Below are positions 20,252-37,033 of a DNA stretch of 40,654 nucleotides, in pieces (positions within the stretch are counted from its first letter, which is position 1; each line of letters begins with the position of its first letter). This DNA comes from Allobosea sp. (GTDB lineage: Bacteria; Pseudomonadota; Alphaproteobacteria; Rhizobiales; Beijerinckiaceae): positions 1 to 40,654 of the forward strand of contig NZ_JAFKFW010000037.1 in the NCBI RefSeq assembly GCF_017308015.1. Direction: 5' to 3'. The translations under genes and the position numbers were made by a program. The notes beneath the pieces were generated by a model, which searched no databases, had not been told where the DNA came from, and saw nothing but the letters and a program-made list of their open reading frames with translations.

Positions 20252-20252
20252 G

Positions 20253-21755
20253 ATGGACGCATTCGCTGCCCTCCTCACCGGCTTCCAGGTCGCACTGACC
20301 CCGCTCAACCTCGCTGTGGCCTTCGCCGGCGTGGCACTCGGCACCGCCATCGGCGCGTTGCCGGGCATCGGCCCGATCAATGCGGTCGCCCTGCTGCTGC
20401 CGCTCTGCTTTGCGCTGAAACTGCCGCCCGAGACGGCGCTGATCCTGCTCGCCGGGCTGTATTACGGCAGCGGCTATGGCGGCCGCATCTCCTCGATCCT
20501 GCTCAACATCCCCGGCGACCCCGGGCTGGTGATGACCACGCTCGACGGCTATCCGCTCGCCAAATCCGGACGCGGAGCAGCCGCGCTGGCGATCAGCGGC
20601 ATCGGCAGCTTCGTCGGCGGCACCAGCGCCGTCATCCTGATGACTTTCCTCGCCGTGCCGCTGACAAGGCTCGCGCTCTCCTTCGGTCCGGCCGATTATG
20701 TCGCGCTGATGGTGCTCTCGTTTGCGCTGCTCGGCACGATGAGCGAGGGCAAGGCGGTGAAGACCTGGATCGCGGTGGCGCTCGGTCTCCTGCTCGCCAT
20801 GGTCGGCATCGATGGCGGCACCGGCGTCGAGCGCTTCACTTTCGGTTCGCTGGAACTGCTGGGTGGCATCGACTTCACCAGCCTGACGATCGGGCTCTTC
20901 GCCGTCGCCGAGATCCTCTTCCTGGCAGAAGGCATGATCAGCGGCGTGGTCTCCCGCACCGGCAGCGGCGCCCGGCTGACCTTCCGCGAAATCATCTACT
21001 GCATCCCGGCGATGCTGCGCGCGACAGGGCTTGGCTTCTTCCTCGGTGTATTGCCCGGCACCGGTGCCTCCGTCGCTTCGGCGATGGCCTACACCGCCGA
21101 GAAACGCATCTCGGACAAGGGTACGTTCGGGAAGGGCGATATGCGAGGCCTCGCCGCGCCAGAAACTGCCGACAACGCAGCGCAGACCGGCTCGATGGTG
21201 CCGATGCTGGCGCTCGGCATTCCCGGCTCCGGCACGACCGCCGTGATGCTCGGCGCCTTCATGATGTATTCGATCACGCCCGGCCCGCTGCTGTTCACGC
21301 AGCGCCCGGAGGTCGCCTGGGGCCTGATCGCCTCGATGTATATCGGCAACCTGATGCTGCTGGTGCTCAACCTGCCGCTGGTCGGACTGTTTGCGCGACT
21401 GCTGCTGGTACCGGCCTGGATTCTCTATCCCGGCATCCTCGCCCTGTCCTATGCGGGTGTCTACGCCGTATCGAACTCCGCCTTCGAGCTGATCATCACC
21501 ACCGGCATAGGTGTCCTCGCCTATATCCTGCGCAAGGTCGGCATCCCGCTGATCCCGCTGATGCTGGCCTTCGTGCTCGCCCGGCTGCTGGAAGACAATT
21601 TTCGCCGGGCGCTGTCCTTGTCGGATGGCGGCTACGAGATTCTGTTCTCGACGCCGACCAGCATCGTGCTCTGGCTGCTGGCCATCGTCGCGATCGGCCT
21701 GCCATTGATCCGCAAGCCGAAGCTTCATCCAGCCGTGATCGGTGAGGCCGGATAG
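20253..21755 (+). CDS. tctA: tripartite tricarboxylate transporter, large membrane subunit TctA (system 2)
   Basis: Transport subunit of 500 residues with about twelve hydrophobic segments. TctA landmarks: LGTAIGALPGIGPINAVALLLPL (about 30-52), YYGSGYGGRISSILLNIPGDPGL (about 70-92), and APETADNAAQTGSMVPMLALGIPGSGTTAVML (second half). It is clearly related to the system 1 TctA but not a recent duplicate: the corresponding motifs differ at many positions. Last gene of the rightward operon; a hairpin follows its stop. Confidence 0.92.
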   Translation: MDAFAALLTGFQVALTPLNLAVAFAGVALGTAIGALPGIGPINAVALLLPLCFALKLPPETALILLAGLYYGSGYGGRISSILLNIPGDPGLVMTTLDGYPLAKSGRGAAALAISGIGSFVGGTSAVILMTFLAVPLTRLALSFGPADYVALMVLSFALLGTMSEGKAVKTWIAVALGLLLAMVGIDGGTGVERFTFGSLELLGGIDFTSLTIGLFAVAEILFLAEGMISGVVSRTGSGARLTFREIIYCIPAMLRATGLGFFLGVLPGTGASVASAMAYTAEKRISDKGTFGKGDMRGLAAPETADNAAQTGSMVPMLALGIPGSGTTAVMLGAFMMYSITPGPLLFTQRPEVAWGLIASMYIGNLMLLVLNLPLVGLFARLLLVPAWILYPGILALSYAGVYAVSNSAFELIITTGIGVLAYILRKVGIPLIPLMLAFVLARLLEDNFRRALSLSDGGYEILFSTPTSIVLWLLAIVAIGLPLIRKPKLHPAVIGEAG

Positions 21756-22671: not shown

Positions 22672-23835
22672 ATGCCCAAGCTCGATCTCGACGCCCTGCA
22701 ATCCGAGATGACCGCATGGCGGCGTCATCTGCACACACATCCCGAATTCGGCTTCGAAGAGAAGCAGACGGCAGCCTTCGTCGCCGGGAAACTGCGCGAA
22801 TTCGGCCTGGACGATGTCGTCGAGAACATCGGCGGCACCGGGGTCGTCGGCACGCTCAGGCGCGGTAGCGGCAACCGCGCCATCGCCTTGCGCGCCGATA
22901 TGGATGCGCTGCGGATCACCGAGCAAGGCGAACACCCCTATCGCTCGCAAAAGCCCGGCGTGATGCATGCCTGCGGCCATGACGGCCATACCAGCATGCT
23001 GCTCGGGGCAGCCAAGCTGCTCGCGGAGGAAGGCGGCTTCGACGGCACCGTGCGCTTCCTCTTCCAGCCGGCCGAGGAATGGGGACGCGGGGCGCTCGCC
23101 ATGCTCGACGACAGACTGATGGAGCGCTTCCCCTTCGACGAGATCTACGGCCTGCACAACATGCCGGGCCTCGCCATCGGGCAATTCCAGACGCGCGCCG
23201 GGTCGTTTATGTCGGCCGAGGACAATTTCGAGATCGTCCTGAACGGCGTCGGCGGACATGCCGCCAAGCCCCATGCCGGCCACGAGGTCCTCGTCGCCGC
23301 CTGCGCGCTCGTGATGCAGCTCCAGACCATCGTATCGCGCCGCCTGAGCCCGGCCGATATCGCCGTGCTCTCCGTCACCGAACTGCTGACGGACGGCACC
23401 CGCAACGTGCTGCCGGGAACGGCGCGCATCCTCGGGGACGCCCGCAGCTTCCGCCCCGAGGTCAGCGCCGAGATCGAGCGCCAGATGGGCATCATCGCGC
23501 GCGGCACCGCCGAGAGCTACAACCTGACCTGCGAGATGATCTACACGCGCGAATTCGTGCCGCTGGTGAATGACGCCGCGCTCTCGCTGGAGGCGCTCGC
23601 CGCCGCGCGGGCCGTGCTGAGCGATGACAACGTCGCGATCGCGAAAGAGCCGATGACGGGTTCGGAGGATTTCGCCCGCTTCCTGGAGCATGTCCCCGGC
23701 TGCTTCGCCTATGTCGGCAATGGCGAAGGCTCGGCGCCGCTGCACAACCCATCCTATGACTTCGATGATCGCGGCCTGATTCATGGCGCGCGTTTCCACG
23801 CCGCAATCGTCCGGCACAGGCTGCACGCCCGCTGA
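22672..23835 (+). CDS. M20-family amidohydrolase (hippurate/N-acyl amino acid hydrolase-like)
   Basis: Metal-dependent amidohydrolase of 387 residues that removes an acyl group from an N-acylated amino acid or related amide. Metal-binding motifs: ALRADMDAL (72-80), HACGHDGHTSML (99-110), FQPAEEWGRGA (Glu pair of the active site), and LHNPSYDFDD near the end. The dimerisation lid domain lies between (about residues 185-300), with GGHAAKPHAGHEVLVAA. It is divergent from the dehydrogenase gene, 180 bases apart. The subgroup containing HipO, auxin-conjugate and aminoacylase enzymes cannot be resolved further. Confidence 0.9.
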   Translation: MPKLDLDALQSEMTAWRRHLHTHPEFGFEEKQTAAFVAGKLREFGLDDVVENIGGTGVVGTLRRGSGNRAIALRADMDALRITEQGEHPYRSQKPGVMHACGHDGHTSMLLGAAKLLAEEGGFDGTVRFLFQPAEEWGRGALAMLDDRLMERFPFDEIYGLHNMPGLAIGQFQTRAGSFMSAEDNFEIVLNGVGGHAAKPHAGHEVLVAACALVMQLQTIVSRRLSPADIAVLSVTELLTDGTRNVLPGTARILGDARSFRPEVSAEIERQMGIIARGTAESYNLTCEMIYTREFVPLVNDAALSLEALAAARAVLSDDNVAIAKEPMTGSEDFARFLEHVPGCFAYVGNGEGSAPLHNPSYDFDDRGLIHGARFHAAIVRHRLHAR

Positions 23836-23924
23836 GCTTCAGACCCGCAAGAGACCAATCTTTCCCGCTGCCGCGTTTCCGGGGGAGGGTCTTGCAAACA
23901 TCCCCTGATCTATGGAGCCAAACC

Positions 23925-23942
23925 CTACGCCGGCCGGCGTAG
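23925..23942. repeat. perfect 18-bp palindrome
   Basis: CTACGCCGGCCGGCGTAG reads the same on both strands. It lies 90 bases after the amidohydrolase stop and touches a second, larger inverted repeat. It could be a strong hairpin acting as a terminator or part of a dispersed repetitive element. Confidence 0.7.
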
Positions 23943-23986
23943 ACATGAGCCTCATCCCGTCCAACCGACGTCGAACGGACTCATGT
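23943..23986. repeat. inverted repeat ACATGAG...CTCATGT with inner stem
   Basis: ACATGAG (23943-23949) and CTCATGT (23980-23986) are perfect 7-bp arms. Between them CCGT (23957-23960) can pair with ACGG (23975-23978), and the centre holds the palindrome CGACGTCG (23966-23973). It begins on the base after the 18-bp palindrome. Confidence 0.6.
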
Positions 23987-24204
23987 TTCAACACTCAGGC
24001 GCGCTTGCTCATGCGCGCTTCCCCCCCGGCACGCGGCCCGCAGCGCGCTCTTGCCGTTATCCTCCCAGATGCCGTGTCACACATCGCCTTCGACCCGGGT
24101 TGCGTCGGTCACGAAGCGGCTGGTCTCGAGGCTGCACGCCGCGCCGAAGCCTTGCCTGGAAGCCGCCCATGGCGCGCAGTTTAGCACGACGCCGGCAAAG
24201 CTCA

Positions 24205-24233
24205 TTGACGCAGCGCAAATTCGCTGCTTCATT
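24205..24233 (+). promoter_or_regulatory. candidate promoter and operator of the ten-gene operon
   Basis: TTGACG (24205-24210) is a good -35; after 17 bases the -10 position reads TTCATT, a poor match. Overlapping the spacer is a perfect 6-bp inverted repeat, GCAGCG (24210-24215) and CGCTGC (24222-24227), around CAAATT. A regulator bound there would cover the promoter; the LysR protein encoded inside the operon is a candidate. Confidence 0.4.
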
Positions 24234-24264
24234 CGCATAAAGCATCAAGCAATGGAGTTGATGC

Positions 24265-24759
24265 ATGAAAGGGATTGCCATGGCCCAGCCCGCCACCCCT
24301 GAGGCGTCTCCCTGGCTCGCCGCCGCCACCTCGGCCGCCGCAAGCTCGCGCAGCACGATTTTCGAGATGAGCCAGCAGGCCGAAAGCGCGGTGATCGACC
24401 CGCGCGATCCTGGCGGTTTTCCCTCCGCCTGGCGCCGCGCCGTCGCCGCCCGGATCGCGACCCTGAACGCCTTGCCGGAGCTGGCCACCCACTATCTCTC
24501 CGACGTGGCCGACGCGACGCTACGCGGCCTCGCCGATCCCGCCTACGCCGGACGCGATGACCGCGAGCGCGGCGTCATCACCTTCATGGATCGGGTCGCA
24601 ACCCAGCCGCGCGACGTGCAGGCCGAGGAGATCGAGGCGCTCAAGGCGGCCGGCGTCGCCGAGGCTGACATCGTGCGGCTCTGCGAACTCAACGCCTTCA
24701 TGAGCTATCAGTGCCGCGTCCTCGCCGGGCTCGCGGCTCTCAAGGGAGCCTCAGCATGA
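24265..24759 (+). CDS. CMD-domain protein (Avi_7170-like), no CxxC
   Basis: Protein of 164 residues resembling, from memory, the family named CMD domain protein Avi_7170 (TIGR04029), which is found next to its AhpD-like partner. It is largely helical and Ala-rich. Unlike catalytic AhpD/CMD proteins it has no C-x-x-C; the only Cys residues are near the end (RLCELNAFMSYQCRV). GGAG precedes ATG 24265; ATG 24280 is an alternative. Its stop overlaps the next start by four bases (ATGA), so the two proteins are probably made in equal amounts and may form one complex. Role unknown. Confidence 0.75.
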   Translation: MKGIAMAQPATPEASPWLAAATSAAASSRSTIFEMSQQAESAVIDPRDPGGFPSAWRRAVAARIATLNALPELATHYLSDVADATLRGLADPAYAGRDDRERGVITFMDRVATQPRDVQAEEIEALKAAGVAEADIVRLCELNAFMSYQCRVLAGLAALKGASA

Positions 24760-25337
24760 GCCGCGTCGTGCATCGCTTCACCCGCAACGTGCCGGAATGG
24801 CAGCCGCGGATCACCCCGGTGGATCTCTCCAAGGCGAACCCCGAGCAGCTCGACGCGCTGAAGGTCACGCCTTCCAACACCAAGGTCTCGGACTACGTGC
24901 TGGTACTGGCACATGACCCGGAAACACTGGCCGTGCGCTCGCCGCTGTTCAACGGCATCATGTACGATCCCGGCGGGTTGAGCCGGGCCGAGCGCGAACT
25001 CGGGGCGATCGGCGCCTCGATCGTCAACCGCTGCATCTTCTGCGCCGCCGTGCATGCCGCCCGTCACGCGCAGCTCAGCAAGGACACCGCCGTCACCGAC
25101 GAATTGTTCGCCAATGGCGAGAAAGCCAAGCTCGGCCCGCGCGACCAGGCGATCTTCGATTATTCCGTCAAGCTCTCGCAATCGCCGCCGACCGTCACCG
25201 AGGCCGACACCGCCCGCCTGCGCGAGGCCGGGCTGAACGAGGCCGAGATCGTCGATCTCATTCTGTCCACGGCCCTGTTCGGCTGGGCCAACCGGCTGAT
25301 GCACATCCTCGGCGATCCGGTTCGCAAAGACGGGTGA
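24756..25337 (+). CDS. alkylhydroperoxidase/CMD-domain protein (Avi_7169-like)
   Basis: AhpD-fold protein of 193 residues. The redox motif is complete: C93-I-F-C96-A-A-V-H100, preceded by E81 in RERELGAIGAS, as in AhpD and related peroxidases. From memory it fits the family named alkylhydroperoxidase domain protein Avi_7169 (TIGR04030), reported as a steady neighbour of the preceding CMD protein and of peptide-type ABC transporters. The ATG at 24756 overlaps the previous stop (ATGA); the frame is open upstream to 24711 but that is shadow. The likely task is removal of a peroxide or oxidation of a thiol linked to the monooxygenase downstream; this is inference. Confidence 0.83.
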   Translation: MSRVVHRFTRNVPEWQPRITPVDLSKANPEQLDALKVTPSNTKVSDYVLVLAHDPETLAVRSPLFNGIMYDPGGLSRAERELGAIGASIVNRCIFCAAVHAARHAQLSKDTAVTDELFANGEKAKLGPRDQAIFDYSVKLSQSPPTVTEADTARLREAGLNEAEIVDLILSTALFGWANRLMHILGDPVRKDG

Positions 25338-25338
25338 G

Positions 25339-26295
25339 ATGAGCCGCCTCAAGATACTCGAGGCCTATCTGCAGGTCGCCTCGCTCGGCAGCGTCACGGC
25401 GGCAGCGAAGCATCTGGGCGTGTCCCAGCCTTCGGTCAGCCGCATGATCCAGGAGCTGGAGCGCGACCTCGGCCAGCCACTCTTCGAGCGTGTCGGCCAG
25501 CGGCTGGTGCTCACGCAGAAGGGCATGGTGCTGCGCGACGATGTCGAGCGGGCATTGGCCGGCTTCGTGAATCTGTGGGAACGCGCCCGCGAGGTGATCG
25601 GCGAGGCGGAGCCGCCCATCCGGATATCGGCCGTGTCCTCGCTCGCCTTCGGCCTGCTCACCGATGCCTGGAACGGGGCCGATGCACCCCGGCTCGCGAT
25701 CGAGGTCGAGAACCCCGATCGCGTGCAGAACGCGGTGATCTCCGGCAACGCCCAGCTCGGCGCCACCAGCGCGCCCCTGCTGCATCGCGACCTCGCGCTC
25801 GAATGGCTGGGCACCGCGCCTTGCGTGCTCGCCGTGCCGGAGACCGATCCGCTCGCACAGAGCGAGGGGCCGATCGACCTCCAGGCCCTTTCCGGGCGGG
25901 ACCTCGTCGGCATGTCCCTGCGCCGGGGTGTCCCGGCGCGCATCCGCGCAGCACTCAACGCGGCCGGCGTCGATGTCCGCGTCCGAATCCGCACGACCTC
26001 GACCATGAACGTATTGTCCTTCATCCGCGCCGGCGCCGGCATCGCCATCGTCGAGCCCCTGACGCTGACCGGCAACCCGACGCCCGGTATCCGCATTCTG
26101 CCGCTGGCGACGCCGATCCCCTATTGCTTCGGCGTCGTCACCGCGCGCGGCGTCACCATCTCCGACAAGGCCCGCGACCTGATCGCCGCGCTCAAGGCGA
26201 CGGCCCAGAAGCGGCTCGCCGATTTCACCCTGATTCCACCCGAAGAGCACCAGACGCTCCTCGCCTCGCTGACCAAACAGGAGACGCGGCTGTGA
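25339..26295 (+). CDS. LysR-family transcriptional regulator inside the operon
   Basis: Regulator of 318 residues with the helix-turn-helix in residues 1-60 (GSVTAAAKHLGVSQPSVSRMIQELERDLGQPLFERVGQ) and an effector domain starting at about 90 (IRISAVSSLAFGLLTDAW). It starts one base after the stop of the AhpD-like gene and its stop overlaps the next start (GTGA), so it is translated as part of the operon, not from a divergent promoter as most LysR genes are. That arrangement would give autoregulation as the operon is induced. The carboxy end is long and polar (PPEEHQTLLASLTKQETRL). Confidence 0.88.
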   Translation: MSRLKILEAYLQVASLGSVTAAAKHLGVSQPSVSRMIQELERDLGQPLFERVGQRLVLTQKGMVLRDDVERALAGFVNLWERAREVIGEAEPPIRISAVSSLAFGLLTDAWNGADAPRLAIEVENPDRVQNAVISGNAQLGATSAPLLHRDLALEWLGTAPCVLAVPETDPLAQSEGPIDLQALSGRDLVGMSLRRGVPARIRAALNAAGVDVRVRIRTTSTMNVLSFIRAGAGIAIVEPLTLTGNPTPGIRILPLATPIPYCFGVVTARGVTISDKARDLIAALKATAQKRLADFTLIPPEEHQTLLASLTKQETRL

Positions 26296-27746
26296 CGACG
26301 AACCAGGCCGGGTCGCCGGAAGGGCTGGCGGCGCTGAACCGGCGCGTCATCCGCGAACTCGAACTGCTGACCCTGCCGGCCGCGCCCTGGGTGCCGGAGC
26401 GGAGCGTGAACGGCGAACCGGTGCTCGACGTCGCGATCATCGGGGCCGGCATGGCCGGGCTCGCTGCGGCCGCGGCCTTCCGCAATATCGGCCTGCGCGC
26501 CGTCAATTTCGACCGGCGCCCACAGGGCTTCGAAGGGCCCTGGGCGACGACGGCGCGGATGGAGACGCTGCGCTCGCCCAAAACGCTGACCGGGCCGGCG
26601 CTCGGCATCCCCTCGCTGACCTTCCGCGCCTGGTACGAGGCACAGTTCGGCGCGGCCGACTGGGAGGCGCTCGACAAGATCCCGCGCCTGATGTGGATGG
26701 ACTATCTGCGCTGGTTCCGCGAGGTTCTCGCTCTCGATGTCCGCAACGGCCATGAGATCGCGATGATCCATCCCGGCCCCGAGCATGCGACGCTGGAAAT
26801 CGACGCCGCCGGCAGGCGCCAGCGCGTCCTCGCCCGCCATGTCGTGCTCGCAACCGGGCGCGACGGGCTCGGCGGCCCGGCCGTGCCGGAAATCGCGGAG
26901 AGCCTGCCGCGCGAGCGCTGGGCGCATTCCTCGGATGAGAACGACTATACGCAACTCCGTGGCAAGCGCGTCGCGGTGATCGGCGCCGGCGCCTCGGCGA
27001 TGGACAGCGCCGGCACGGCGCTCGAAGCGGGCGCGGCCAGTGTCGACCTGCTGATCCGCCGCCGCGACATTCCCCGCATCAACCGCGGCAAGGGCATGGG
27101 CCATCCCGGCTCGACCGCCGGCTACCGCCATCTGCCCGATGCCTGGAAATGGCGGATCAACAGTTACATCGCTCGCGAGCAGGTGCCGCCGCCGCGCGCC
27201 AGCGTGCTGCGCGTCTCACGCCATCCCAACGCCTTCTTCCGGCAAGGAACCGCGCTGATCTCGGCCCGGATGGACGGCGACGAGATCGTGGTCGAGACCA
27301 GCGTGGGTATGATGCGCTTCGACTTCATGATCTTCTCGACCGGGTTCAAGGTCGACTGGGGCAGCAGGCCCTTCCTCAAGGAGATCGCGGCCAGCGCCCG
27401 CAACTGGGTCGATCGCGGCGTGCCCGAGGATGCCGAACCCAGCCTCGGCGCCATGCCCGATCTCGGGCCTGCCTTCGAGTTCCAGCCGAAGGTCCCCGGC
27501 ACCTGCCCCGGGCTCGAGCGCATCCACTGCTTCTGCTATCCGGCGATGATGTCGCACGGCACAGTCTCCGGCGACATCCCCGCGATCAGCGACGGCGCAG
27601 AGCGGCTGTCACAGGCCATCGCCTCCAGCCTTTTCCGCGAGGATATCGAGGTTCACTTCCAGCGCGGCCAGGATTATGCCGAGCCGGAAATCTTCGGCGA
27701 CGAGTGGGTCCCGATCCTGCCCGAACCCGCGAAGGTGCCAGTCTGA
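26292..27746 (+). CDS. FAD/NAD(P)-dependent monooxygenase-like oxidoreductase
   Basis: Flavoprotein of 484 residues. Two dinucleotide-binding motifs are clear: FAD site DVAIIGAGMAGLAAAA (residues 46-61) and NADP site RVAVIGAGASAMDSAG (226-241), with the ATGR strand (187-190) between them. This is the layout of flavin-containing monooxygenases and Baeyer-Villiger-type enzymes, but neither class fingerprint (FxGxxxHxxxW/P) is present in clear form, so a ferredoxin-reductase-like function is also possible. The GTG at 26292 overlaps the LysR stop (GTGA); the frame is open much further upstream as shadow of the LysR gene. Its stop shares a base with the next start. It probably oxidises the compound imported by the adjoining ABC transporter. 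Confidence 0.83.
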   Translation: MTTNQAGSPEGLAALNRRVIRELELLTLPAAPWVPERSVNGEPVLDVAIIGAGMAGLAAAAAFRNIGLRAVNFDRRPQGFEGPWATTARMETLRSPKTLTGPALGIPSLTFRAWYEAQFGAADWEALDKIPRLMWMDYLRWFREVLALDVRNGHEIAMIHPGPEHATLEIDAAGRRQRVLARHVVLATGRDGLGGPAVPEIAESLPRERWAHSSDENDYTQLRGKRVAVIGAGASAMDSAGTALEAGAASVDLLIRRRDIPRINRGKGMGHPGSTAGYRHLPDAWKWRINSYIAREQVPPPRASVLRVSRHPNAFFRQGTALISARMDGDEIVVETSVGMMRFDFMIFSTGFKVDWGSRPFLKEIAASARNWVDRGVPEDAEPSLGAMPDLGPAFEFQPKVPGTCPGLERIHCFCYPAMMSHGTVSGDIPAISDGAERLSQAIASSLFREDIEVHFQRGQDYAEPEIFGDEWVPILPEPAKVPV

Positions 27747-28720
27747 TGCTCGGGTGGCTGCTCCAGCGCGTCGCGCAGGCGCTGCTCGTGATCTTCGCGA
27801 TGTCCCTCGTGGTCTTCCTCGGGCTGCATGCCGTCGGCAACCCCGCCGACCTGCTGCTGGCGCCGGACGCGACGCAGATCGACCGGGCGGAACTCGTGGC
27901 CAGGCTCGGCCTCGACCGGCCGCTCTGGGAACAGTATCTGAACTTCGCGGGCAGCGCCCTGCAGGGCGATCTCGGCCGCAGCTTCGTCTACAACGTGCCC
28001 GCCGTGACGCTGATCCTGCAGCGCCTGCCGGCGACGCTGGAACTTGCTTTCGCCGCGATGGTCTTCGCGATCATCATCGGCGTGCCGCTTGGGCTCTATG
28101 CGGGGCTCCATCCCGAGCGCCTGCTGTCGAAACTGATCCAGACCGGGAGCATCCTCGGTTTCTCGCTGCCGACGTTCTGGGTCGGGCTGCTGCTGATCAT
28201 GACCTTCAGCGTCTCGCTGGGCTGGCTGCCGGCGAGCGGACGCGGTGAGACAGTGCGCGTCTTCGGCGTCGAGTGGTCGTTCCTGACGCTGAACGGCTGG
28301 CGCCACCTGCTGCTGCCGGCGATCAACCTGTCGCTGTTCAAGGTCTCGCTGGTGATCCGGCTGACGCGGGCCGGTGTGCGCGAGGTGCTGCCGCTCGACT
28401 ATGTCCGCTTCGCGCGGGCCAAGGGCCTGCGCCGCGGCCGGATCGTGATGATGCATATCCTGCGCAACATCATGATCCCGCTGGTCACCGTGCTCGGGCT
28501 CGAACTCGGCTCGACCATCGCCTTTGCGGTGGTGACCGAGAGCATCTTCGCCTGGCCGGGCTCGGGCAAGCTCATCCTCGACAGCATCAACGCGCTCGAT
28601 CGGCCGGTGGTGATGGCTTACCTGCTGGTGGTGGTGACGCTCTTCGTCATCATCAACCTCATCGTCGACATTCTCTACCGCGTGCTCGACCCGCGCGTCC
28701 GCGAGGAGGCCTCGGCATGA
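27746..28720 (+). CDS. ABC transporter permease, DppB/OppB type
   Basis: Inner-membrane permease of 324 residues with six hydrophobic segments. The amino-terminal signature of the DppB type is intact (RVAQALLVIFAMSLVVFLGLHAVGNPADLLL), as is GLDRPLWEQYLNF and the cytoplasmic EAA-like loop DYVRFARAKGLRRGRIVMMHILRN (about 225-250). The ATG at 27746 shares a base with the previous stop (TGATG); its own stop overlaps the next start (ATGA). It forms the channel with the DppC-type protein encoded next. Confidence 0.92.
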   Translation: MLGWLLQRVAQALLVIFAMSLVVFLGLHAVGNPADLLLAPDATQIDRAELVARLGLDRPLWEQYLNFAGSALQGDLGRSFVYNVPAVTLILQRLPATLELAFAAMVFAIIIGVPLGLYAGLHPERLLSKLIQTGSILGFSLPTFWVGLLLIMTFSVSLGWLPASGRGETVRVFGVEWSFLTLNGWRHLLLPAINLSLFKVSLVIRLTRAGVREVLPLDYVRFARAKGLRRGRIVMMHILRNIMIPLVTVLGLELGSTIAFAVVTESIFAWPGSGKLILDSINALDRPVVMAYLLVVVTLFVIINLIVDILYRVLDPRVREEASA

Positions 28721-29615
28721 CCACGGTTCCCGCCGCCGCTTCGGCCCGCCGCCCGTCGAGCAGCGCGCTCCGCCGCTTCCTGCGCGCCCCTTCCGCGTGG
28801 ATAGGACTCGGCCTGATGATCCTGCTCGTGATCGGAGCCGTATTCGCACCGCAGATCGCGCCGCAAAACCCGTTCGATCTCGCCGCCATCGACGTGCTCG
28901 ACGCCCGGATGACGCCGGGTTCGGTCTCGTCGGGCGGAGACATCACCTATCTGCTCGGCACCGACGGGCAGGGGCGCGACCTGTTCTCGGCGATCCTCTA
29001 CGGCCTCAGGACGAGCCTCACCGTCGGCGTCGGCTCGGCCGCGCTCGCCGGAATCATCGGCATCCTGCTCGGGCTGATCGCGGCCTGGAGCGGCGGCTTC
29101 GTCGACGCGCTGATCATGCGGCTCGTCGATCTCATCATGTCGCTACCCTCGATCCTGGTCGCACTTCTGATGCTGGCGCTGCTCGGCAAGGGCATCGGCA
29201 ATGTCGTGCTGACGCTGGTCCTGCTGGAATGGGCCTATTACGCCCGCACGGCCCGCGCTCAGGCCCTGGTCGAGCGCAAGCGTGATTATTTCGAAGCCGC
29301 ACGAGGCCTGGGCCTGCCGATCTCGCGCATCCTGTTGCGCCATGTCCTGCCCAATTGTCTGCCGCCGCTCCTGGTCATCGCCGCCCTGCAGGTCGCGCGA
29401 GCCATCACGCTGGAAGCGACCCTCTCCTTCCTCGGCCTCGGCGTCCCGGTCACGCAGCCCTCGCTCGGCCTGCTCATCGCCAACGGCTTCCAGTTCATGC
29501 TGTCCGGCGAATATTGGATCAGCTTCTTTCCCGGCCTGACGCTGCTGACAGCCATCGTCGCGATCAATCTCGTCGGCGATCGCCTGCGCGAAGTGCTCGA
29601 CCCGAGGGCGCTGAA

Positions 29616-29619
<4 letters not shown>
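28717..29619 (+). CDS. ABC transporter permease, DppC/OppC type
   Basis: Inner-membrane permease of 300 residues. The amino end has the DppC-type first helix preceded by a basic cytoplasmic tail, the conserved [23 protein letters not shown] block (about 80-102), the cytoplasmic coupling loop [26 protein letters not shown] (about 188-213) and [11 protein letters not shown] near the end. Overlaps at both ends (ATGA) show tight translational coupling within the importer. Substrate class for this pair includes di- and oligopeptides, opines and glutathione. Confidence 0.92.
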
Positions 29620-30601
<982 letters not shown>

Positions 30602-30605
<4 letters not shown>

Positions 30606-31627
30606 CGAAGACCTCCACCCCTGCCGCTCCGGCGCTGGAGACGCGCAAGCTGACCCGGCATTTCGGCCGCCCGGCCGGGCTTGCCGTCAAGCTGCACCTG
30701 GCGAAGCGCCAGCCAATCATCCGGGCGCTCGACGGCATCGACCTGACCATCCCGACCGGCGAGTTCGTCGGGCTTGTCGGCGAATCCGGCAGCGGCAAGT
30801 CGACGCTGGGCCGCATCGCCGCCGGCCTGCTGCCACCCAGCACCGGCGAAGTCGAAGTATTCGGGCGCACGCCCCAGGGCGACCGCTCGGTGCATCGCGA
30901 CGTGCAACTGATCTTCCAGGATCCGCAGGCGAGCCTCAATCCGCGCATCCGCGTGGCCGAGGCGATCGGCGAGGCGCCGCTGGTCCATGGCATCGCCTCG
31001 CGCGCCGAGATCGACGACTATGTCTGCGCGCAGATGCGCCGGGCCGGGCTCGACCCCGCCTATCGCCAGCGCTTCCCGCACCAGTTTTCCGGCGGCCAGC
31101 GCCAACGCATCTCGATCGCGCGGGCGCTGGCGCTGCAGCCACGCTTCCTGGTCTGCGACGAATCCGTGGCGTCGCTCGACGTCTCGATCCAGGCGCAGAT
31201 CCTCAACCTGTTCATGCAGCTCCGGCGCGAGCTCGACCTCACCTATCTCTTCATCAGCCACGACCTGCGCGTCGTCCAGCACATCGCCGACCGCGTCGTG
31301 ATCATGTATCTCGGCCGCATCGTCGAGGATGCGCCGGCGGCCCGGTTCTTCGCCCATCCCAACCACCCCTATACGCAGGGCCTGCTGGCGGAGATTCCCG
31401 ACCTGAAGCAGCGCAGGCGCGTCTATGCCCCGGTGAAGGGCGAAATCCCGAGCCCGGCCGCACCGCCGCCAGGCTGCCACTTCCACCCTCGCTGTCCGGC
31501 CGCCTTCGACCGCTGCCGGATCGAGCGCCCGGTCCTGCGCACGATCGCGCCGGGCCATCGTTCCGCCTGCCACCTCAACGACGCCTCCGCGGTTCCAGCC
31601 CGCGCGCAAACAGGAGAGATCGCATGA
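30602..31627 (+). CDS. ABC transporter ATP-binding protein, DppF/OppF type
   Basis: Second ATPase, 341 residues. Walker [10 protein letters not shown] (about 61-69), signature FSGGQRQRISIARAL. Walker B reads FLVCDESVASLDVS, with Ser in the place where most family members have Pro (CDEPVSALDVS); the catalytic Glu is kept. The DppF carboxy extension with paired Cys is present (GCHFHPRCPAAFDRC...SACHL). It ends by overlapping the binding-protein gene start by ATGA. Together with the DppD-type protein it would energise the importer as a heterodimer. Confidence 0.92.
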
Positions 31628-33195
31628 CGACCAAACTGAGCACGTTCGCCCTCTCGGCTGCACTGAGCCTCGCGGCAGGCGCGGCCAGCGCAGAAGACCT
31701 GCGCATCGGCTTCGGCGATCCGGTCTCGGCAATCGACCCGCAGCTCAACAACCATGCCGGCGACCACTCGGTCTCGCAGCATTTCTGGTCGCGCCTCGTC
31801 GCGCAGAAGACCGAGGGCGGCGTGGTGCCCGACATCGCGGCATCCTGGAAGAACCTCTCGCCCAATACCTGGGAGTTCAAGCTGCGCGAGAACGCGGTCT
31901 GGACCGACGGCAAGCCGGTCACGGCCGAGGACGTCGCCTTCTCCTATGAGCGCGCCCAGGCCGTGCCAGGCTCCGTCGCCAGCTTCAAGGGCTTCCTGCG
32001 CAACGTGGCCAAGGTCGAGATCAAGGACCCGCATACGCTGATCATCACCAGCCGCGCGCCCGATCCGCTGCTGCCGATCAACATCTCCAGCGTCTATGTC
32101 GTCAGCAAGCATGTCGGCCAGACCGCCACGACGGACGATTACAACAGCGGCAAGGCGATGGTCACCGACGGCCCCTACGCCTTCGTCAGCTATACGCCCG
32201 GCGACCGCATCGAGATGAAGCGCAACGAGCGCTTCTGGGGCCCGAAACCCGAATGGGAGAAGGTCAACTACCGCTATATCGCCAATCCTGCGGCGCGCAC
32301 CGCCGCCCTGCTCTCGGGCGATGTCGACGTGATCGACAAGGTCTCCTTCTCCGATATCGAGAAGCTGGAGAAGAATCCCAAGGTCAAGGTCTGGTCCTAT
32401 CCGGGCCTGCGCGCGCTGATCATGCAGCCGAGCTTCAACCCGAACCCGTCGAAATTCCTCACCGACAAGGCCGGCAAGCCGCTCGACAAGAACCCGCTGC
32501 TCGACGTGCGCGTCCGCCAGGCACTCAACATCGCGATCAACCGCGAGGCGATCGCCGACCGAGTCGCGCGTGGCGGCGTCACGGTCGCGACGCAGTGGAT
32601 GCCGGCCGGCAGTTTCGGCTACGATCCCGACCGCTCCAAGATCGACGTCGACCCCAACAAGGCCAAGGCCCTGCTGACCGAGGCCGGCTATCCCAACGGC
32701 TTCAAGCTGACCATGCATGTGCCAGGCGAACGCTACCCGCTGGCGCCCGAGACCGCGCAGGCGATCGCCCAGTTCTGGACCCGCATCGGCGTCGAGACGC
32801 AGGTCGAGGTCGTGCCCTTCTCGGTCTATTCCGGCGCGGCCAACAAGAACGAATATGCGATGAGCATGATCGGCTGGGGCAACGGCACCGGCGAGGGCAC
32901 CTATGCGATGACCGCGATCCTCGCGACCGTCGATCCGGCCAAGGGTCTGGGCGCCTCGAACTGGGGCCGCTACAGCAACCCGAAGCTGGACGAGGCCCTC
33001 GCCAAGGCCGGCGCCGAGTTCGACGACGCCAGGCGCGAGGCGATCATCAAGGACGCGGTCAAGGTCGTGATGGACGATGTCGGGATCATGCCGCTGTACC
33101 ACTACAAGAACATCTGGGCGAGCCGCCCGGACCTGAAGGTCGTGCCCTGGCACAGCGACCGCACGGTCGCGATGCAGGTCAGCAAGGCCAAGTAA
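31624..33195 (+). CDS. ABC transporter peptide/opine-type substrate-binding protein
   Basis: Periplasmic binding protein of 523 residues of the extracellular solute-binding family 5. Signal peptide residues 1-23 (ending AASA, then EDLRIG). Landmarks: AIDPQLNNHAGDHSV, DIAASWKNLSPNTWEFKLRENAVWTDGKPVTAEDVAFSYERA, and INREAIADRVARGG. No lipobox, so it is soluble. The gene is last in the importer, whereas family members are often first; its stop is 10 bases before the hydrolase gene. Ligand cannot be read from the sequence, but the AhpD and monooxygenase neighbours argue against an ordinary nutritional peptide. Some homologues in this setting are described in the TIGR04028 group, which I recall but did not check. 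Confidence 0.9.
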   Translation: MTTKLSTFALSAALSLAAGAASAEDLRIGFGDPVSAIDPQLNNHAGDHSVSQHFWSRLVAQKTEGGVVPDIAASWKNLSPNTWEFKLRENAVWTDGKPVTAEDVAFSYERAQAVPGSVASFKGFLRNVAKVEIKDPHTLIITSRAPDPLLPINISSVYVVSKHVGQTATTDDYNSGKAMVTDGPYAFVSYTPGDRIEMKRNERFWGPKPEWEKVNYRYIANPAARTAALLSGDVDVIDKVSFSDIEKLEKNPKVKVWSYPGLRALIMQPSFNPNPSKFLTDKAGKPLDKNPLLDVRVRQALNIAINREAIADRVARGGVTVATQWMPAGSFGYDPDRSKIDVDPNKAKALLTEAGYPNGFKLTMHVPGERYPLAPETAQAIAQFWTRIGVETQVEVVPFSVYSGAANKNEYAMSMIGWGNGTGEGTYAMTAILATVDPAKGLGASNWGRYSNPKLDEALAKAGAEFDDARREAIIKDAVKVVMDDVGIMPLYHYKNIWASRPDLKVVPWHSDRTVAMQVSKAK

Positions 33196-33205
33196 GGACA
33201 CTGCC

Positions 33206-34492
33206 ATGCCCGCCGCCTTCTCGATCAGCCCTGCCGTCGATCTGATCGACGTGCCCCGTCGGATCGCCCTCGCCGGGCTGCCGGCGGGCGCGGAGGTGAC
33301 CATCGCCGCGGAGACCCCGCGCGACGGCCATGTCTGGCGGGCTGAGGCTGTGTTCGCGGCGGGAGCAGACGGCAGCATCGACCTCGAACGCGATGCTCCC
33401 TTGCTGGGCGACTACGCGGGCGTCGCGGGAATGGGGCTGATCTGGGCGCAGACCGGTCAAGGCGAGCTGTTCCCGGCCGACCTGTCCCACCCGCTCGAAA
33501 CAACGCTCACCGCCCGCATTGGCGGTGAGCACGCCGCTACCGGGCACTTCAGCCAGATCCTGATGGCGAAGGGCGTGACGCGGCACCCCGTCGCCGAAGA
33601 CGGGGTGATCGGAACGCTGTTCCTGCCGGCCGATGCCGGCCCGCATCCCGCGATCATGATCCTCAACGGCTCGGGCGGCGGCATCAACGAGCCGCGCGCG
33701 GCACTCTGGGCTTCACACGGCGTGGCCGCGTTGGCGCTTGGCTATTTCGGCGCGCCCGGCCTGCCGAAATACATTTCGAACACGCCACTGGAATATTTCG
33801 CCCGTGGACTCGACTGGCTGCGGGCCAGGGTTCGCCCGCTGAACGATTTCATCGCCGTGGCCGGACAGTCACGCGGCGGCGAGCTCGCGCTGCTGCTCGG
33901 CGCCACCTTCCCAGACAAGGTCTCGGCGGTGCTGGGCTATGTGCCGAGCGCCTTCGTCCATAGTGGCCAGGCCGCAGCCGACCCGGCTCCGGGGCTCGGC
34001 CGCGACGGTCCCGGCTGGACGCTGGATGGCAACCCACTCGTCCATCAATGGCAGGACAACGCCACGGCGAGCTGGAAGCCTTACGATGAAGCGACCGACA
34101 CGCGCCGCAATGCCGATGCGATGCTGACTGCACTCGGCGACCCCGCCGCCATGGCCCGCGCCCGTATCCCGGTCGAGCGGATCGCGGGGCCGGTCCTGCT
34201 GCTGTCCGGTGGCGACGACGGCGCCTGGCCTTCCGATCTCTATTCGCTGATCGTGCAGTCGAGCCTGCTCGCGGCCGGGCATCCGCACGAGGTTCTCTGG
34301 AAGAACTGGCCGGCGGCCGGGCATTCGATCCTGTTCCCGCATACACCGGCAACCCGCATCGCCCATCGACACCCGGTCAGCGGCATTGCCACGACGATGG
34401 GCGGCACGCCTGCCGCGAATGCCGGGGCCAATGTCGGCGCCTGGGAGACGGCGCTTGCCTTCGTCAGGCGCCATGGCGGGCAGGCAGGCTGA
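33206..34492 (+). CDS. alpha/beta-hydrolase, acyl-CoA thioesterase/BAAT-dienelactone hydrolase type
   Basis: Hydrolase of 428 residues. The amino-terminal 120 residues form a beta-sandwich like the acyl-CoA thioester hydrolase/BAAT amino-terminal domain; the rest is an alpha/beta-hydrolase fold of the BAAT carboxy-terminal/dienelactone hydrolase kind. The nucleophile motif is G-Q-S222-R-G-G, the acid is Asp in SGGDDGAWPS (337-338) and the His is in AAGHSI (H373). In human BAAT the nucleophile is Cys; Ser here suggests an esterase, thioesterase or lactonase. No signal peptide, so cytoplasmic. It closes the ten-gene operon and may open or release the product of the oxidation step. Confidence 0.83.
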   Translation: MPAAFSISPAVDLIDVPRRIALAGLPAGAEVTIAAETPRDGHVWRAEAVFAAGADGSIDLERDAPLLGDYAGVAGMGLIWAQTGQGELFPADLSHPLETTLTARIGGEHAATGHFSQILMAKGVTRHPVAEDGVIGTLFLPADAGPHPAIMILNGSGGGINEPRAALWASHGVAALALGYFGAPGLPKYISNTPLEYFARGLDWLRARVRPLNDFIAVAGQSRGGELALLLGATFPDKVSAVLGYVPSAFVHSGQAAADPAPGLGRDGPGWTLDGNPLVHQWQDNATASWKPYDEATDTRRNADAMLTALGDPAAMARARIPVERIAGPVLLLSGGDDGAWPSDLYSLIVQSSLLAAGHPHEVLWKNWPAAGHSILFPHTPATRIAHRHPVSGIATTMGGTPAANAGANVGAWETALAFVRRHGGQAG

Positions 34493-34525
34493 AGCGGCGG
34501 CAATCCGATCGGGCGGGGAAGTCCG

Positions 34526-34545
34526 GCGATCGGCTGGCCGACCGC
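34526..34545 (+). terminator. hairpin after the hydrolase gene
   Basis: GCGATCGG and CCGACCGC can form an 8-bp stem with one mismatch around CTGG, followed by CTGTTGTGT. It lies 33 bases after the stop of the ten-gene operon and is a weak candidate for its terminator. Confidence 0.35.
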
Positions 34546-34649
34546 CTGTTGTGTGCGGAAGAATTTTCGCGTCATGGTCGCGCTGACTTCGCGCCGGCGA
34601 CACGCTATTGCTGTGCCGGCTTAACATACCTCGGCTCACCGGATCGCGA

Positions 34650-35687
34650 ATGGTTTCTGTAGCGCTGAAGACGGTTTCGAAGACCTGGGGCGGCACCCCC
34701 GCCGTCGATGCCATCAGCTTTACCGTCGAGGGCGGCAAACTCGTCGCGCTGCTCGGCCCGTCCGGCTGCGGAAAGTCGACGACACTGCGGCTGATCGCCG
34801 GGCTGGAGGAGACCAGCAGCGGCACGATCGAGATCGGCGGGCGCGACGTCACCCATGCCTCGCCATCGCAACGCGGCATCGCCATGGTGTTTCAGAACTA
34901 TGCGCTGTTCCCGCATCTGAGCGTGGCCGAGAACATCCTGTTCGGGCTCAAGGTCCGCAAGGTCTCGCGCGCCGAGCGCGACGAGCGCCTCGCCCGCGCC
35001 GCTTCGATCCTCGGCCTCTCCGCCCTGCTCGAACGCAAGCCCTCGCAGCTCTCCGGCGGCCAGCAGCAGCGCGTTGCGCTCGGCCGCGCCATCGTCGCGG
35101 AAGCCCCCGTCTGCCTGATGGACGAGCCGCTCTCCAATCTCGACGCCCAGTTGCGCGTCGAGATGCGCCGCGAGATCCGCGAATTGCAGCAGCGGCTCGG
35201 CATGACCATGGTCTATGTCACGCATGATCAGGTCGAGGCGATGACCATGGCCGATCAGGTTGTGCTGATGCGCAACGGCCGGATCGAGCAGGATGCCCCG
35301 CCGGACGTGCTCTACGAGAACCCGGCGACGATCTTCGCGGCCCGCTTCGTCGGCACGCCGCCGATGAACGTGGTGCCGCTCGCGACCGTGCACGCGCGCG
35401 GCGGCACGCTGATCCCGCCACCGGACATCGACCCGGCCGCTCTCGCCGTCGGAATCCGTCCGGAAATGGTCGAGATCACCGAACGCGGCGTCGCCGCCGA
35501 TGTCGTCGCCGTCGAATATCTCGGCTCCGACACGCTGCTCGAAACCCGCATCGACGGCCATTCCTTCATCGTCAAGCGCCCCGGCAAGGTGCGAGCCACA
35601 GGCGGCGAACAGATCTACATCACGTTGTCACAATCGGCGCTGCACTGGTTCGACCAAGCGTCGGAACGGAAGGTGGTTCGCAACTGA
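34650..35687 (+). CDS. ABC transporter ATP-binding protein, UgpC/MsmK type
   Basis: ATPase of 345 residues. Walker A GPSGCGKST (36-44), signature QLSGGQQQRVALGRAI, Walker B VCLMDEPLSNLDAQLR, and the switch His in YVTHDQVEAM. After residue 240 comes the TOBE-type regulatory region with VGIRPEMVEI and the GAD-type linker FVGTPPMN. This is the class that serves glycerol-phosphate and sugar importers of the UgpABCE or MalK family. I chose ATG 34650; a TTG at 34608 would add 14 residues not seen in the family. First gene of a rightward operon; 53 bases separate it from the binding-protein gene. Confidence 0.9.
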   Translation: MVSVALKTVSKTWGGTPAVDAISFTVEGGKLVALLGPSGCGKSTTLRLIAGLEETSSGTIEIGGRDVTHASPSQRGIAMVFQNYALFPHLSVAENILFGLKVRKVSRAERDERLARAASILGLSALLERKPSQLSGGQQQRVALGRAIVAEAPVCLMDEPLSNLDAQLRVEMRREIRELQQRLGMTMVYVTHDQVEAMTMADQVVLMRNGRIEQDAPPDVLYENPATIFAARFVGTPPMNVVPLATVHARGGTLIPPPDIDPAALAVGIRPEMVEITERGVAADVVAVEYLGSDTLLETRIDGHSFIVKRPGKVRATGGEQIYITLSQSALHWFDQASERKVVRN

Positions 35688-35740
35688 ACCTGCCAGAGCG
35701 TCGGACGTGCGGACCATCCCAACAAGGGAGAGAGGACATT

Positions 35741-37033
35741 ATGGACAGGCGTGAATTTCTCGGCGGCACGGCCGCCCTTGCGGGCGCGACCGCCCTGCCC
35801 GGCATCGCCCGCGCGCAGAGCGCAACCGAGCTCTCCTTCTTCTACCCCGTCGCCGTCGGCGGGCCGATCACCAAGCTGATCGACGCCTATGCCGCCGGCT
35901 TCGAGAAGGATAACCCTTCCGTCAAGCTGAAGCCGATCTATGCCGGCACCTATCAGGAAACCATCGTCAAGGCGCTCACCGCCCACAAGAGCGGCACGCC
36001 GCCGGCACTCTCGGTGCTGCTCTCGACCGACATGTTCACGCTGATCGACGAAGAGGCGATCGTGCCCTTCGACGATTTCATCAAGACCGACGAGGACAAG
36101 AAGTGGCTCGCCAGCTTCTATCCCGGCTTCATGGAGAACAGCCAGACCGGCGGCAAGACCTGGGGTATCCCGTTCCAGCGCTCCACGGTGGTGCTCTACT
36201 GGAACAAGGACCTGTTCAAGGAAGCCGGCCTCGACCCCGAGAAGCCGCCGAAGACCTGGGCCGAGCAGGTCGAGTTCGCGCAGAAGCTGACCAAGCGCGA
36301 CGCCGCCGGCAACACCACGCAATGGGGTATCCAGATCCCCTCCTCCGGCTTCCCCTACTGGCTCTTCCAGGGTCTCACGACGCAGGCCGGCGCGATCCTC
36401 GCCAACAGCGCCGGCGACAAGACCGACTATGCCAATCCGGGCGTGGTCGAGGCGTTGCAGTACTGGGTGGACCTGTCGCAGAAGCACAAGGTTCATCCGC
36501 CCGGTATCGTCGAATGGGGCACCACGCCGCGCGACTTCTTCGAGAAGAAGGTCGCGATGATGTGGACCACCACAGGCAACCTGACCAATGTCCGCGCCAA
36601 CGCCAAGTTCCCCTTTGGGGTCGCGGTGCTGCCGGCCGGCAAGAAGCCGGGCAGCCCGACCGGCGGTGGCAACTTCTACCTCTCCAAGAAGGCGACCAGG
36701 GCCGAGCAGGAAGCCGCCTTCAAGTTCGTGCGCTGGATCACCACGCCCGAACGCGCGGCGCAGTGGAGCGCCGAGACCGGCTATGTCGGCGTGACGCCGG
36801 CCGCTTACGAGACAGAGGCGATGAAGAAATATGTCGCCGACTTCCCGCAGGCGATCGTCGCACGCGACCAGCTTTCGAGCGCGGTGGCCGAGCTTTCGAC
36901 CCACGAGAACCAGCGCGTCACCAAGGCGCTGAACGACGGGTTGCAGGCAGCGCTGACCGGCACCAAGGCGCCGCAGAAGGCGATGGAGGACGCGCAGGCA
37001 GAGGCCGAGCGCATCCTCAAGGCCTATCGCTGA
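35741..37033 (+). CDS. ABC transporter substrate-binding protein, UgpB-like (family 1)
   Basis: Periplasmic binding protein of 430 residues of the extracellular solute-binding family 1. The start MDRREFLGGTAALAGA has a twin Arg motif (R3-R4-x-F-L), so export by the Tat path is likely; cleavage after about residue 25 (GIARA). UgpB-type landmarks: ELSFFYPVAVGGPITKLIDAY, KPIYAGTYQETIVKALTAHKSGTPPALSVLLS, and WGIPFQRSTVVLYWNKDLFKEAGLDP. The block GTYQETIVKALTA and the position beside UgpA/UgpE-type permeases favour glycerol 3-phosphate or a glycerophosphodiester. The ribosome-binding site GGGAGAG lies upstream. Exact ligand not known. Confidence 0.9.
   Translation: MDRREFLGGTAALAGATALPGIARAQSATELSFFYPVAVGGPITKLIDAYAAGFEKDNPSVKLKPIYAGTYQETIVKALTAHKSGTPPALSVLLSTDMFTLIDEEAIVPFDDFIKTDEDKKWLASFYPGFMENSQTGGKTWGIPFQRSTVVLYWNKDLFKEAGLDPEKPPKTWAEQVEFAQKLTKRDAAGNTTQWGIQIPSSGFPYWLFQGLTTQAGAILANSAGDKTDYANPGVVEALQYWVDLSQKHKVHPPGIVEWGTTPRDFFEKKVAMMWTTTGNLTNVRANAKFPFGVAVLPAGKKPGSPTGGGNFYLSKKATRAEQEAAFKFVRWITTPERAAQWSAETGYVGVTPAAYETEAMKKYVADFPQAIVARDQLSSAVAELSTHENQRVTKALNDGLQAALTGTKAPQKAMEDAQAEAERILKAYR

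What the first reader, a model, noticed from the sequence alone, without database searches (positions are those of the whole stretch)
24265..34492. Ten-gene coupled operon for uptake, oxidation and hydrolysis of an unknown compound
A CMD/AhpD protein pair, a LysR regulator, a flavin monooxygenase-like protein, a complete Dpp-type importer and a BAAT/dienelactone-like hydrolase follow each other. Eight of the nine junctions overlap or have at most one base between genes; the last has a 10-base gap. I recall that the Avi_7170/Avi_7169 pair and related ABC transporters recur together in other bacteria but have no assigned substrate, and here a flavin oxidoreductase and a hydrolase replace the luciferase-like monooxygenase that I associate with those loci. 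The set looks like a full pathway: import, oxygenation, peroxide or thiol handling, hydrolysis. This is the best candidate for an undescribed system.
Basis: partly seen in the sequence, partly recalled or inferred. Interest (0 to 1): 0.72.

Follow-up and report, generated by a model that had tools for sequence, protein, structure and literature searches.

The report
Mobile ten-gene flavin-oxidation operon, substrate unknown
Ten tightly packed genes in a Bosea-like bacterium form a real, conserved uptake-and-oxidation operon whose core enzyme trio recurs in many bacteria with different importers, probably to break down a sulphur-containing amino-acid-like compound that has not yet been identified.

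Summary
The ten genes and junctions are as described and are not chance neighbours. The full set recurs in order in Bosea and Pseudochrobactrum, and in Caballeronia and Variovorax with CMD and AhpD at the 3' end, fused in Variovorax. Of 64 FMO loci with 3.5 kb flanks, 53 have AhpD and 52 CMD within 3.5 kb. AhpD keeps CxxC...H in 86 of 86 sequences; CMD has the AhpD fold without it. The trio travels with Dpp, PotF-type, TRAP or polar amino-acid importers. The BAAT/ACOT-like hydrolase marks the window's branch: 8 of 8 loci against 0 of 56. Best reading: a heteroatom-oxidising module, probably on sulphur of an S-substituted cysteine or peptide; relatives lie near a desulfurase-like enzyme, persulfide-dioxygenase-like protein, TauE exporter, S/N-oxide-reductase-like protein, GGT and dipeptidase genes. 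Against: 0 of 8 window-type loci has the desulfurase-like enzyme, the FMO fold resembles amine N-hydroxylases, and a S. meliloti relative was reported in a nitrogen study. New variant of the TIGR04027-04030 kind; substrate unproven.

The parts
24244..24262 (.). dyad ATCAA-N9-TTGAT, likely operator just upstream of the operon (or an mRNA hairpin)
   Evidence: Same place in the window and in 6 of 6 Bosea loci that reach it (L027-L030, L032, L033), arms invariant, spacer drifting; 9 matches in 2.44 Mb scanned: these 7, a second copy of the window's own (L001), and one unrelated in L141
24280..24759 (+). CMD: AhpD-fold partner without catalytic cysteines (TIGR04029-like); first ATG 24265, likely start 24280
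24756..25337 (+). AhpD / peroxidase-related enzyme with CxxC...H motif (TIGR01926)
25339..26295 (+). LysR-type regulator
26292..27746 (+). FAD/NAD(P)H flavin monooxygenase-like protein (FMO), GTG start
27746..28720 (+). Dpp-type permease B
28717..29619 (+). Dpp-type permease C
29616..30605 (+). Dpp-type ATPase D
30602..31627 (+). Dpp-type ATPase F
31624..33195 (+). family-5 solute-binding protein
33206..34492 (+). ACOT/BAAT-family serine hydrolase (GQSRGG loop, DD and AGH motifs; their catalytic reading is recalled)

Best explanation
A ten-gene catabolic operon with its own LysR regulator and one upstream dyad. The Dpp-type importer takes up an amino-acid- or peptide-like compound; the FMO oxygenates a heteroatom in it with NAD(P)H and O2; the AhpD (CxxC...H) with its cysteine-free partner CMD acts as a thiol-redox enzyme that resolves the oxidised, sulfenate- or hydroperoxide-like product; the serine hydrolase splits an ester, thioester or amide. 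The heteroatom is most likely sulphur: an S-substituted cysteine or a glutathione-derived conjugate, ending in release of the thiol. SHOWN here: gene content, linkage, conservation, motifs, the CMD-AhpD fusions, co-occurrence of sulphur-type genes near relatives. INFERRED: substrate, reaction order, and each enzymatic step.
For: Linkage: AhpD within 3.5 kb of FMO in 53 of 64 genome-contig loci (16 of 80 dropped for short flanks). In 149 family genomes, 10 of 10 AhpD places at 50% identity or more (the window's own included) lie within 2 kb of an FMO, against 0 of 2 places at 43-44%, one of these in a genome of 460 contigs. CMD and AhpD belong together: one polypeptide in L037, L048 and L136 beside FMO and in L141 beside an LLM (CMD profile on the N-terminal half, AhpD match on the C-terminal half in 4 of 4). 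Sulphur: a SufS-like class-V enzyme (TIGR01979 125 bits, below its cut-off of 475) with a conserved GGC[AS]CA loop in 22 of 22 full-length copies was found in only 11 of 337 class genomes (E 1e-60, at most 4 candidates scored per genome) but within the held flank of 21 of 53 triad loci (19 full-length, fragments at L083 and L097) against 0 of 11 FMO loci without AhpD. It lies beside a Blh-like persulfide dioxygenase half (NF040641 538 bits, cut-off 625) and a TauE/SafE exporter at L110, L111 and L114, and beside the same dioxygenase at L159 and L160 where no FMO is held. Relatives of a BisC-like S/N-oxide reductase (TIGR00509 590 bits, cut-off 1018, for L055) lie at 7 FMO loci. M19 dipeptidase lies by FMO at L105, L125 and L162 (further off in L044), DsbA-like proteins at L044, L112, L115 and L125, gamma-glutamylcyclotransferase at L162. 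Homologues of the hydrolase adjoin a GGT-family gene at L138, L144 and L145. Precedent: CmoO/CmoJ S-oxidise and cleave S-alkyl cysteine, giving a sulfenic acid that is then reduced (PMC10863075, part 1 of 3 read).
Against: 0 of 8 full-flank window-type loci carry the class-V enzyme or ODH, and the window's own genome has no match to that enzyme at 1e-60. Away from FMO the class-V enzyme has the Blh-like partner in only 2 of 5 loci fetched (L159, L160; only a 26% MBL match at L161, none at L158 or L163). ODH (30 of 53 triad loci) and Kbl/Tdh (11 and 10 of 80 loci) are not explained by a sulphur substrate. The FMO model (pLDDT 72; hits at TM 0.30-0.39, rmsd over 11 A) matches amine N-hydroxylases best. 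The S. meliloti group was found in a nitrogen-stress study (PMC3596328). 11 of 64 FMO loci lack AhpD. Two AhpD-CMD pairs with AhpD at 65-66% identity have no FMO in the 18.0 and 13.6 kb held; one (L118) sits by a TauD-family gene.
Confidence: 0.4

Rival explanations
1. Same module, but the FMO oxygenates nitrogen: it N-hydroxylates an imported amine, polyamine or opine-like secondary amine, which then collapses to a carbonyl and a hydroxylamine; AhpD reduces the product and ODH, where present, handles opine or imine chemistry.
For: PF13434 is the best Pfam hit of the FMO (2.1e-16); Foldseek top hits are PvdA, DesB and SidA; ODH is near 30 of 53 triad loci against 1 of 11 without AhpD; PotF-type importers are the commonest class in the tree (34 of 108 rows with AhpD and PotF-type alone); nitrogen-linked expression of the S. 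meliloti group (PMC3596328).
Against: Persulfide-dioxygenase-like, TauE and cysteine-desulfurase-like genes are not expected; 0 of 8 window-type loci have ODH; the model is of moderate quality and the fold does not fix the heteroatom.
Confidence: 0.3
2. Baeyer-Villiger pair: the FMO turns an imported ketone into an ester and the alpha/beta hydrolase cleaves it; CMD/AhpD remove leaked peroxide.
For: Two different hydrolases go with the FMO in two Dpp branches: BAAT-type (8 of 8 window-type loci) and PcaD/iminopeptidase-like ABH. Profile hits include the monooxygenase entries 4a9w, 4c5o and 4usr; that such enzymes do Baeyer-Villiger reactions is recalled, not read.
Against: In the tree 17 of 108 rows have either hydrolase near (short loci make this a lower bound); CMD/AhpD are more constant than the hydrolase; neighbouring genes of relatives point to amino acids or thiols.
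Confidence: 0.15
3. Chance neighbours: an unrelated importer, regulator and enzymes that happen to be adjacent.
For: The hydrolase and the CMD/AhpD pair each also occur elsewhere.
Against: Ten-gene conservation in Alpha- and Betaproteobacteria, overlapping junctions, purifying selection.
Confidence: 0.02

Closest known systems
TIGR04027-TIGR04030 gene set (KPN_01858 LLM, Avi_7170 CMD, Avi_7169 alkylhydroperoxidase, TIGR04028 SBP)
   Same: Dpp-type importer + flavin monooxygenase + CMD + AhpD in one run; CMD and AhpD fused in some members of both (L141; L037, L048, L136)
   Different: Here the monooxygenase is an FAD/NAD(P)H FMO, not an FMN LLM; CMD, AhpD and SBP score below the equivalog cut-offs; a LysR and a BAAT-type hydrolase are added
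S. meliloti SMb20278-20285 (LysR, potFHIG-like ABC, oxidoreductase, hypothetical protein, CMD)
   Same: Same make-up as L113 of another S. meliloti strain, whose FMO is 48.6% identical to the window's; the equation of L113 with these gene numbers rests on gene content, not on a sequence match
   Different: PotF-type instead of Dpp-type importer, ODH nearby, no BAAT hydrolase annotated; no tested function in the passages read (PMC3596328)
CmoO/CmoJ and YxeK cysteine salvage (Bacillus subtilis)
   Same: Working analogy: flavin S-oxygenation or C-S cleavage, thiol release, an ABC importer in the yxe cluster (PMC10863075 part 1 of 3, PMC9706529 passages)
   Different: No luciferase-like (CmoJ/YxeK-type) monooxygenase and no acetyltransferase among the ten genes; analogy only
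Ornithine/lysine N-hydroxylases (PvdA, SidA, KtzI)
   Same: Closest solved folds and Pfam PF13434
   Different: 13-22% identity over the 50 hits listed, moderate model; no siderophore-type gene among the ten
Acyl-CoA thioesterases ACOT2/ACOT4 and BAAT
   Same: Hydrolase matches 3hlk and 3k2i (1.5e-41, 2.1e-40) and has both BAAT Pfam domains
   Different: Bacterial, in an uptake-and-oxidation operon; substrate untested

Membership tests
TIGR04027-04030 set | CMD at TIGR04029 cut-off | tested here: not met
   68.3 bits vs 100.75
TIGR04027-04030 set | AhpD at TIGR04030 cut-off | tested here: not met
   154.6 vs 233.15
TIGR04027-04030 set | SBP at TIGR04028 cut-off | tested here: not met
   87.3 vs 468.5
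TIGR04027-04030 set | luciferase-like monooxygenase | tested here: not met
   none among the ten proteins; TIGR04027 passes in L142 (560 vs 413 bits)
TIGR01926 peroxidase-related enzyme (AhpD family) | subfamily cut-off and CxxC...H motif | tested here: met
   200 vs 81.8 bits; motif in 86 of 86 FMO-linked AhpD sequences, two of them the window's own
AhpD fold (gene 1, CMD) | fold | tested here: met
   model pLDDT 92; the 48 best-ranked Foldseek hits are AhpD/CMD-type chains, best E 3.7e-4, TM 0.60-0.67 for the top four
AhpD enzymes (gene 1, CMD) | catalytic CxxC | tested here: not met
   absent in 82 of 83 CMD sequences; the exception L048 is a CMD-AhpD fusion
N-hydroxylating monooxygenase (Lys_Orn_oxgnase) | Pfam gathering score and fold | tested here: inconclusive
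   60.4 vs 21.3 bits but only residues 130-259; fold TM 0.30-0.39 with a pLDDT 72 model
N-hydroxylating monooxygenase (Lys_Orn_oxgnase) | amine N-hydroxylation | not testable with these tools
   needs enzyme assay
ACOT/BAAT hydrolases | BAAT_C and Bile_Hydr_Trans domains, Ser-Asp-His type motifs | tested here: met
   89.2 and 76.7 bits; GQSRGG, DD and AGH seen in 9 of 9 homologues printed
ACOT/BAAT hydrolases | acyl-CoA thioester hydrolysis | not testable with these tools
   needs enzyme assay
CmoO/CmoJ-type cysteine salvage | luciferase-like monooxygenase and N-acetyltransferase | tested here: not met
   no such families among the ten proteins

The most novel reading that the evidence does not exclude
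The FMO-CMD/AhpD trio is an unrecognised interchangeable catabolic cartridge: an N-hydroxylase-fold flavoenzyme that opens thioether conjugates (S-substituted cysteines or glutathione conjugates), with an AhpD heteromer of one active and one cysteine-free subunit as dedicated sulfenate reductase, moved between at least four importer families.
Probability: 0.25. Interest if true: 0.75.

Novelty: new variant of a known kind. Interest (0 to 1): 0.5.

Why it matters
It gives a defined, recurring set (FMO + CMD + AhpD) in place of three vaguely annotated genes ('NAD(P)/FAD-dependent oxidoreductase', 'hypothetical protein', 'peroxidase-related enzyme') found in soil, plant-associated and marine bacteria with at least four importer types. 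It suggests a dedicated role for paired AhpD-type proteins beside flavin monooxygenases, which would also bear on the unassigned TIGR04027-04030 set. If the sulphur reading holds it is another, FAD-based route for thioether salvage beside the FMN-based CmoO/CmoJ and YxeK routes.

Tried and rejected
Selenocysteine in the AhpD of G011: the reported in-frame TGA is its terminal stop. TctCBA and M20 upstream as part of the operon: rejected; in L027-L030 and L033 other genes lie between M20 and CMD, and M20 gives no match in the stretches held for L032 and L035. Downstream ABC genes (34650 on): not next to the hydrolase in L032, L035, L036 or L137. Same dyad in other branches: TCAA-N9-TTGA was not found near CMD, LysR or FMO starts in 20 other loci, two of which have it elsewhere. 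A riboswitch for the operon: Rfam at gathering scores found only a cobalamin element 14 kb away. sigma-70 scan of 23000-36000: none found, 0.8 expected. Literature for the trio: 9 answered searches listed nothing on it beyond the S. meliloti mentions; most subscription papers and preprints are not in that library. Papers seen: PMC10863075 part 1 of 3; passages of PMC9706529, PMC3596328 and PMC3484140; the rest only as search listings.
Full report
Observation. The window lies in a genome whose nearest named relatives are Bosea (six loci titled Bosea, FMO 86-96% identical). Pfam and NCBIfam give the families named in the parts list. The only change of coordinates I suggest is the CMD start, 24280 rather than 24265, since the upstream ATG is missing in L030, L032 and L033 while the downstream one is kept.

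Is it a unit? Yes. All ten genes stand in the same order in L027-L030, L032 and L033 (Bosea) and in L035 and L036; L079 (Paenochrobactrum) shows no LysR match, L034 and L031 are short contigs with six and four of the genes. In Caballeronia L137 and Variovorax L136 the order is LysR, FMO, permB, permC, atpD, atpF, SBP, hydrolase, CMD, AhpD, the last two being one 390-residue frame in Variovorax. All ten genes are under purifying selection against L027 and L028 (dN/dS 0.04-0.27). A dyad ATCAA-N9-TTGAT begins 36 bases before the likely CMD start in the window and in L027-L030, L032 and L033, with fixed arms and a changing spacer; in 2.44 Mb of loci the only other distinct copy was one in L141.

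What is the core? From 80 named FMO loci, 64 had at least 3.5 kb on both sides; 16 were set aside. AhpD lay within 3.5 kb in 53 and CMD in 52. The 11 without AhpD are L044, L058, L062, L069, L088, L089, L093, L094, L104, L105 and L106. Because these loci were chosen by the FMO, I asked the reverse with AhpD: in 149 family genomes, 12 AhpD places were found at 1e-30, 10 of them (own included) at 50% identity or more, all 10 within 2 kb of an FMO; the other two (43-44%) are not linked, one in a genome of 460 contigs. In 337 class genomes the result is weaker: of three places at 65-67% besides the window's own, one is linked (G163) and two are not (G227, G341), and three more at 38-41% were not counted as linked. 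In an FMO tree of 108 rows all rows labelled with AhpD fall in one clade of 88 rows (SH-aLRT 95; quick method, no bootstrap, drawn with a midpoint root; labels are lower bounds because some loci are short). The window type lies in a branch of 14 rows (99) that also holds five rows with neither Dpp nor BAAT or with BAAT out of reach; a branch of 48 rows (99) is mostly PotF-type with some TRAP. So FMO + CMD + AhpD is the core, and the importer is exchanged: Dpp, PotF-type, TRAP or polar amino-acid ABC.

Anatomy of the core. AhpD has CxxC...H in 86 of 86 FMO-linked sequences, two of which are the window's own. CMD lacks it in 82 of 83, the exception L048 being a fused CMD-AhpD frame. The CMD model (pLDDT 92) matches AhpD-like peroxidase-related proteins, so CMD is an AhpD relative without the catalytic pair. 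Fusions in L037, L048 and L136 with FMO and in L141 with an LLM (4 of 4 tested carry a CMD half and an AhpD half) say that the two work together. FMO has two dinucleotide-binding motifs by eye and an invariant H212 in 41 sequences; its model is only moderate (pLDDT 72) and its best matches are N-hydroxylases. The hydrolase is an ACOT/BAAT relative with a serine loop in 9 of 9 homologues printed. It is found with 8 of 8 window-type loci (FMO 60% or more) and none of 56 others, but homologues also occur elsewhere: in 149 family genomes the two other places are unlinked, 9 of 12 plasmid records with it are not the Caballeronia/Variovorax operon, and at L138, L144 and L145 it adjoins a gamma-glutamyltransferase-family gene (TIGR00066 298 bits, cut-off 358, for L144).

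What does it act on? No tool here shows the substrate. Neighbours of relatives were used as hints. A SufS-like class-V enzyme (below the curated cut-offs) with a conserved cysteine loop (22 of 22 full-length copies; that this cysteine is catalytic is recalled) is near 21 of 53 AhpD-linked loci, two of them fragments, and 0 of 11 unlinked ones, although a search of 337 class genomes found it in 11. It is next to a Blh-like persulfide dioxygenase half and a TauE/SafE exporter at L110, L111 and L114, and next to the same dioxygenase at L159 and L160 where no FMO is held; at L158, L161 and L163 it has no close Blh-like neighbour. Relatives of a BisC-like S/N-oxide reductase lie at L043, L048, L052, L055, L075, L126 and L132 (L052 and L055 are one species). 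FMO loci without CMD/AhpD can carry a DsbA-like protein and an M19 dipeptidase instead (L044, L125; M19 also at L105 and L162), and L162 has gamma-glutamylcyclotransferase, the class-V enzyme, M19, an FMO of 47% identity and a TRAP importer together. These point to cysteine or glutathione-derived thioethers. The known CmoO/CmoJ pathway shows how such chemistry yields a sulfenic acid that is then reduced (PMC10863075).

Results against that. None of the 8 window-type loci has the class-V enzyme or ODH, and the window's genome has no class-V match at 1e-60, so for this operon the sulphur reading is carried over from cousins. ODH (30 of 53) and Kbl/Tdh (11 and 10 of 80) are unexplained. The FMO's fold and Pfam match lean to N-oxygenation. 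The S. meliloti group was picked up in a nitrogen-stress study and described as putative polyamine transport (PMC3596328, passages). I put the sulphur version at 0.4, nitrogen at 0.3 and Baeyer-Villiger at 0.15.

Known or new? The closest described kind is the NCBIfam set TIGR04027-04030, confirmed here in L142 and L141. The window fails its cut-offs and has no LLM, so it is not a member; it looks like an FMO version of it. Nine answered paper searches listed no account of the FMO-CMD-AhpD trio as such (calls in Tried and rejected). Hence new variant of a known kind.

Noticed in passing
window 9612-9810 (-): Cobalamin riboswitch (119.5 bits) just upstream of a TonB receptor (7546-9546) with a FecCD permease further on: probably a B12 uptake locus.
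   Followed up: no
window 24006-24160, against L027-L030 and L033: In L028 3.6 kb stands between the two stretches that match either side of this point (including a DUF899 and a DUF2182/PpoB2 gene in these Bosea loci); in the window about 150 bases do.
   Followed up: partly
L118 7113-10084: AhpD-CMD pair (AhpD 65% identical) next to a TauD-family gene and an LLM gene, with no FMO in 18 kb: perhaps another oxygenase partner for the pair.
   Followed up: partly
L138, L144, L145: Homologues of the BAAT-type hydrolase adjoin a gamma-glutamyltransferase-family gene; L144 also has an NMT1-type binding protein and an Ldh_2 dehydrogenase nearby, with look-alikes in L145.
   Followed up: partly
L035: A contig titled Bacillus subtilis SK6B4 is 91-94% identical in DNA to Pseudochrobactrum L036 over most of 21 kb, operon included: probably a mislabelled or mixed assembly.
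   Followed up: partly
window 13060-16104 and 18812-21755: Two separate TctA/TctC tripartite tricarboxylate transporter sets on opposite strands, with an MmgE/PrpD gene between them.
   Followed up: no
G426 C1 308410-321226: An AhpD of 41% identity lies 11 kb from an FMO of 44% identity: a looser linkage not counted as linked.
   Followed up: no
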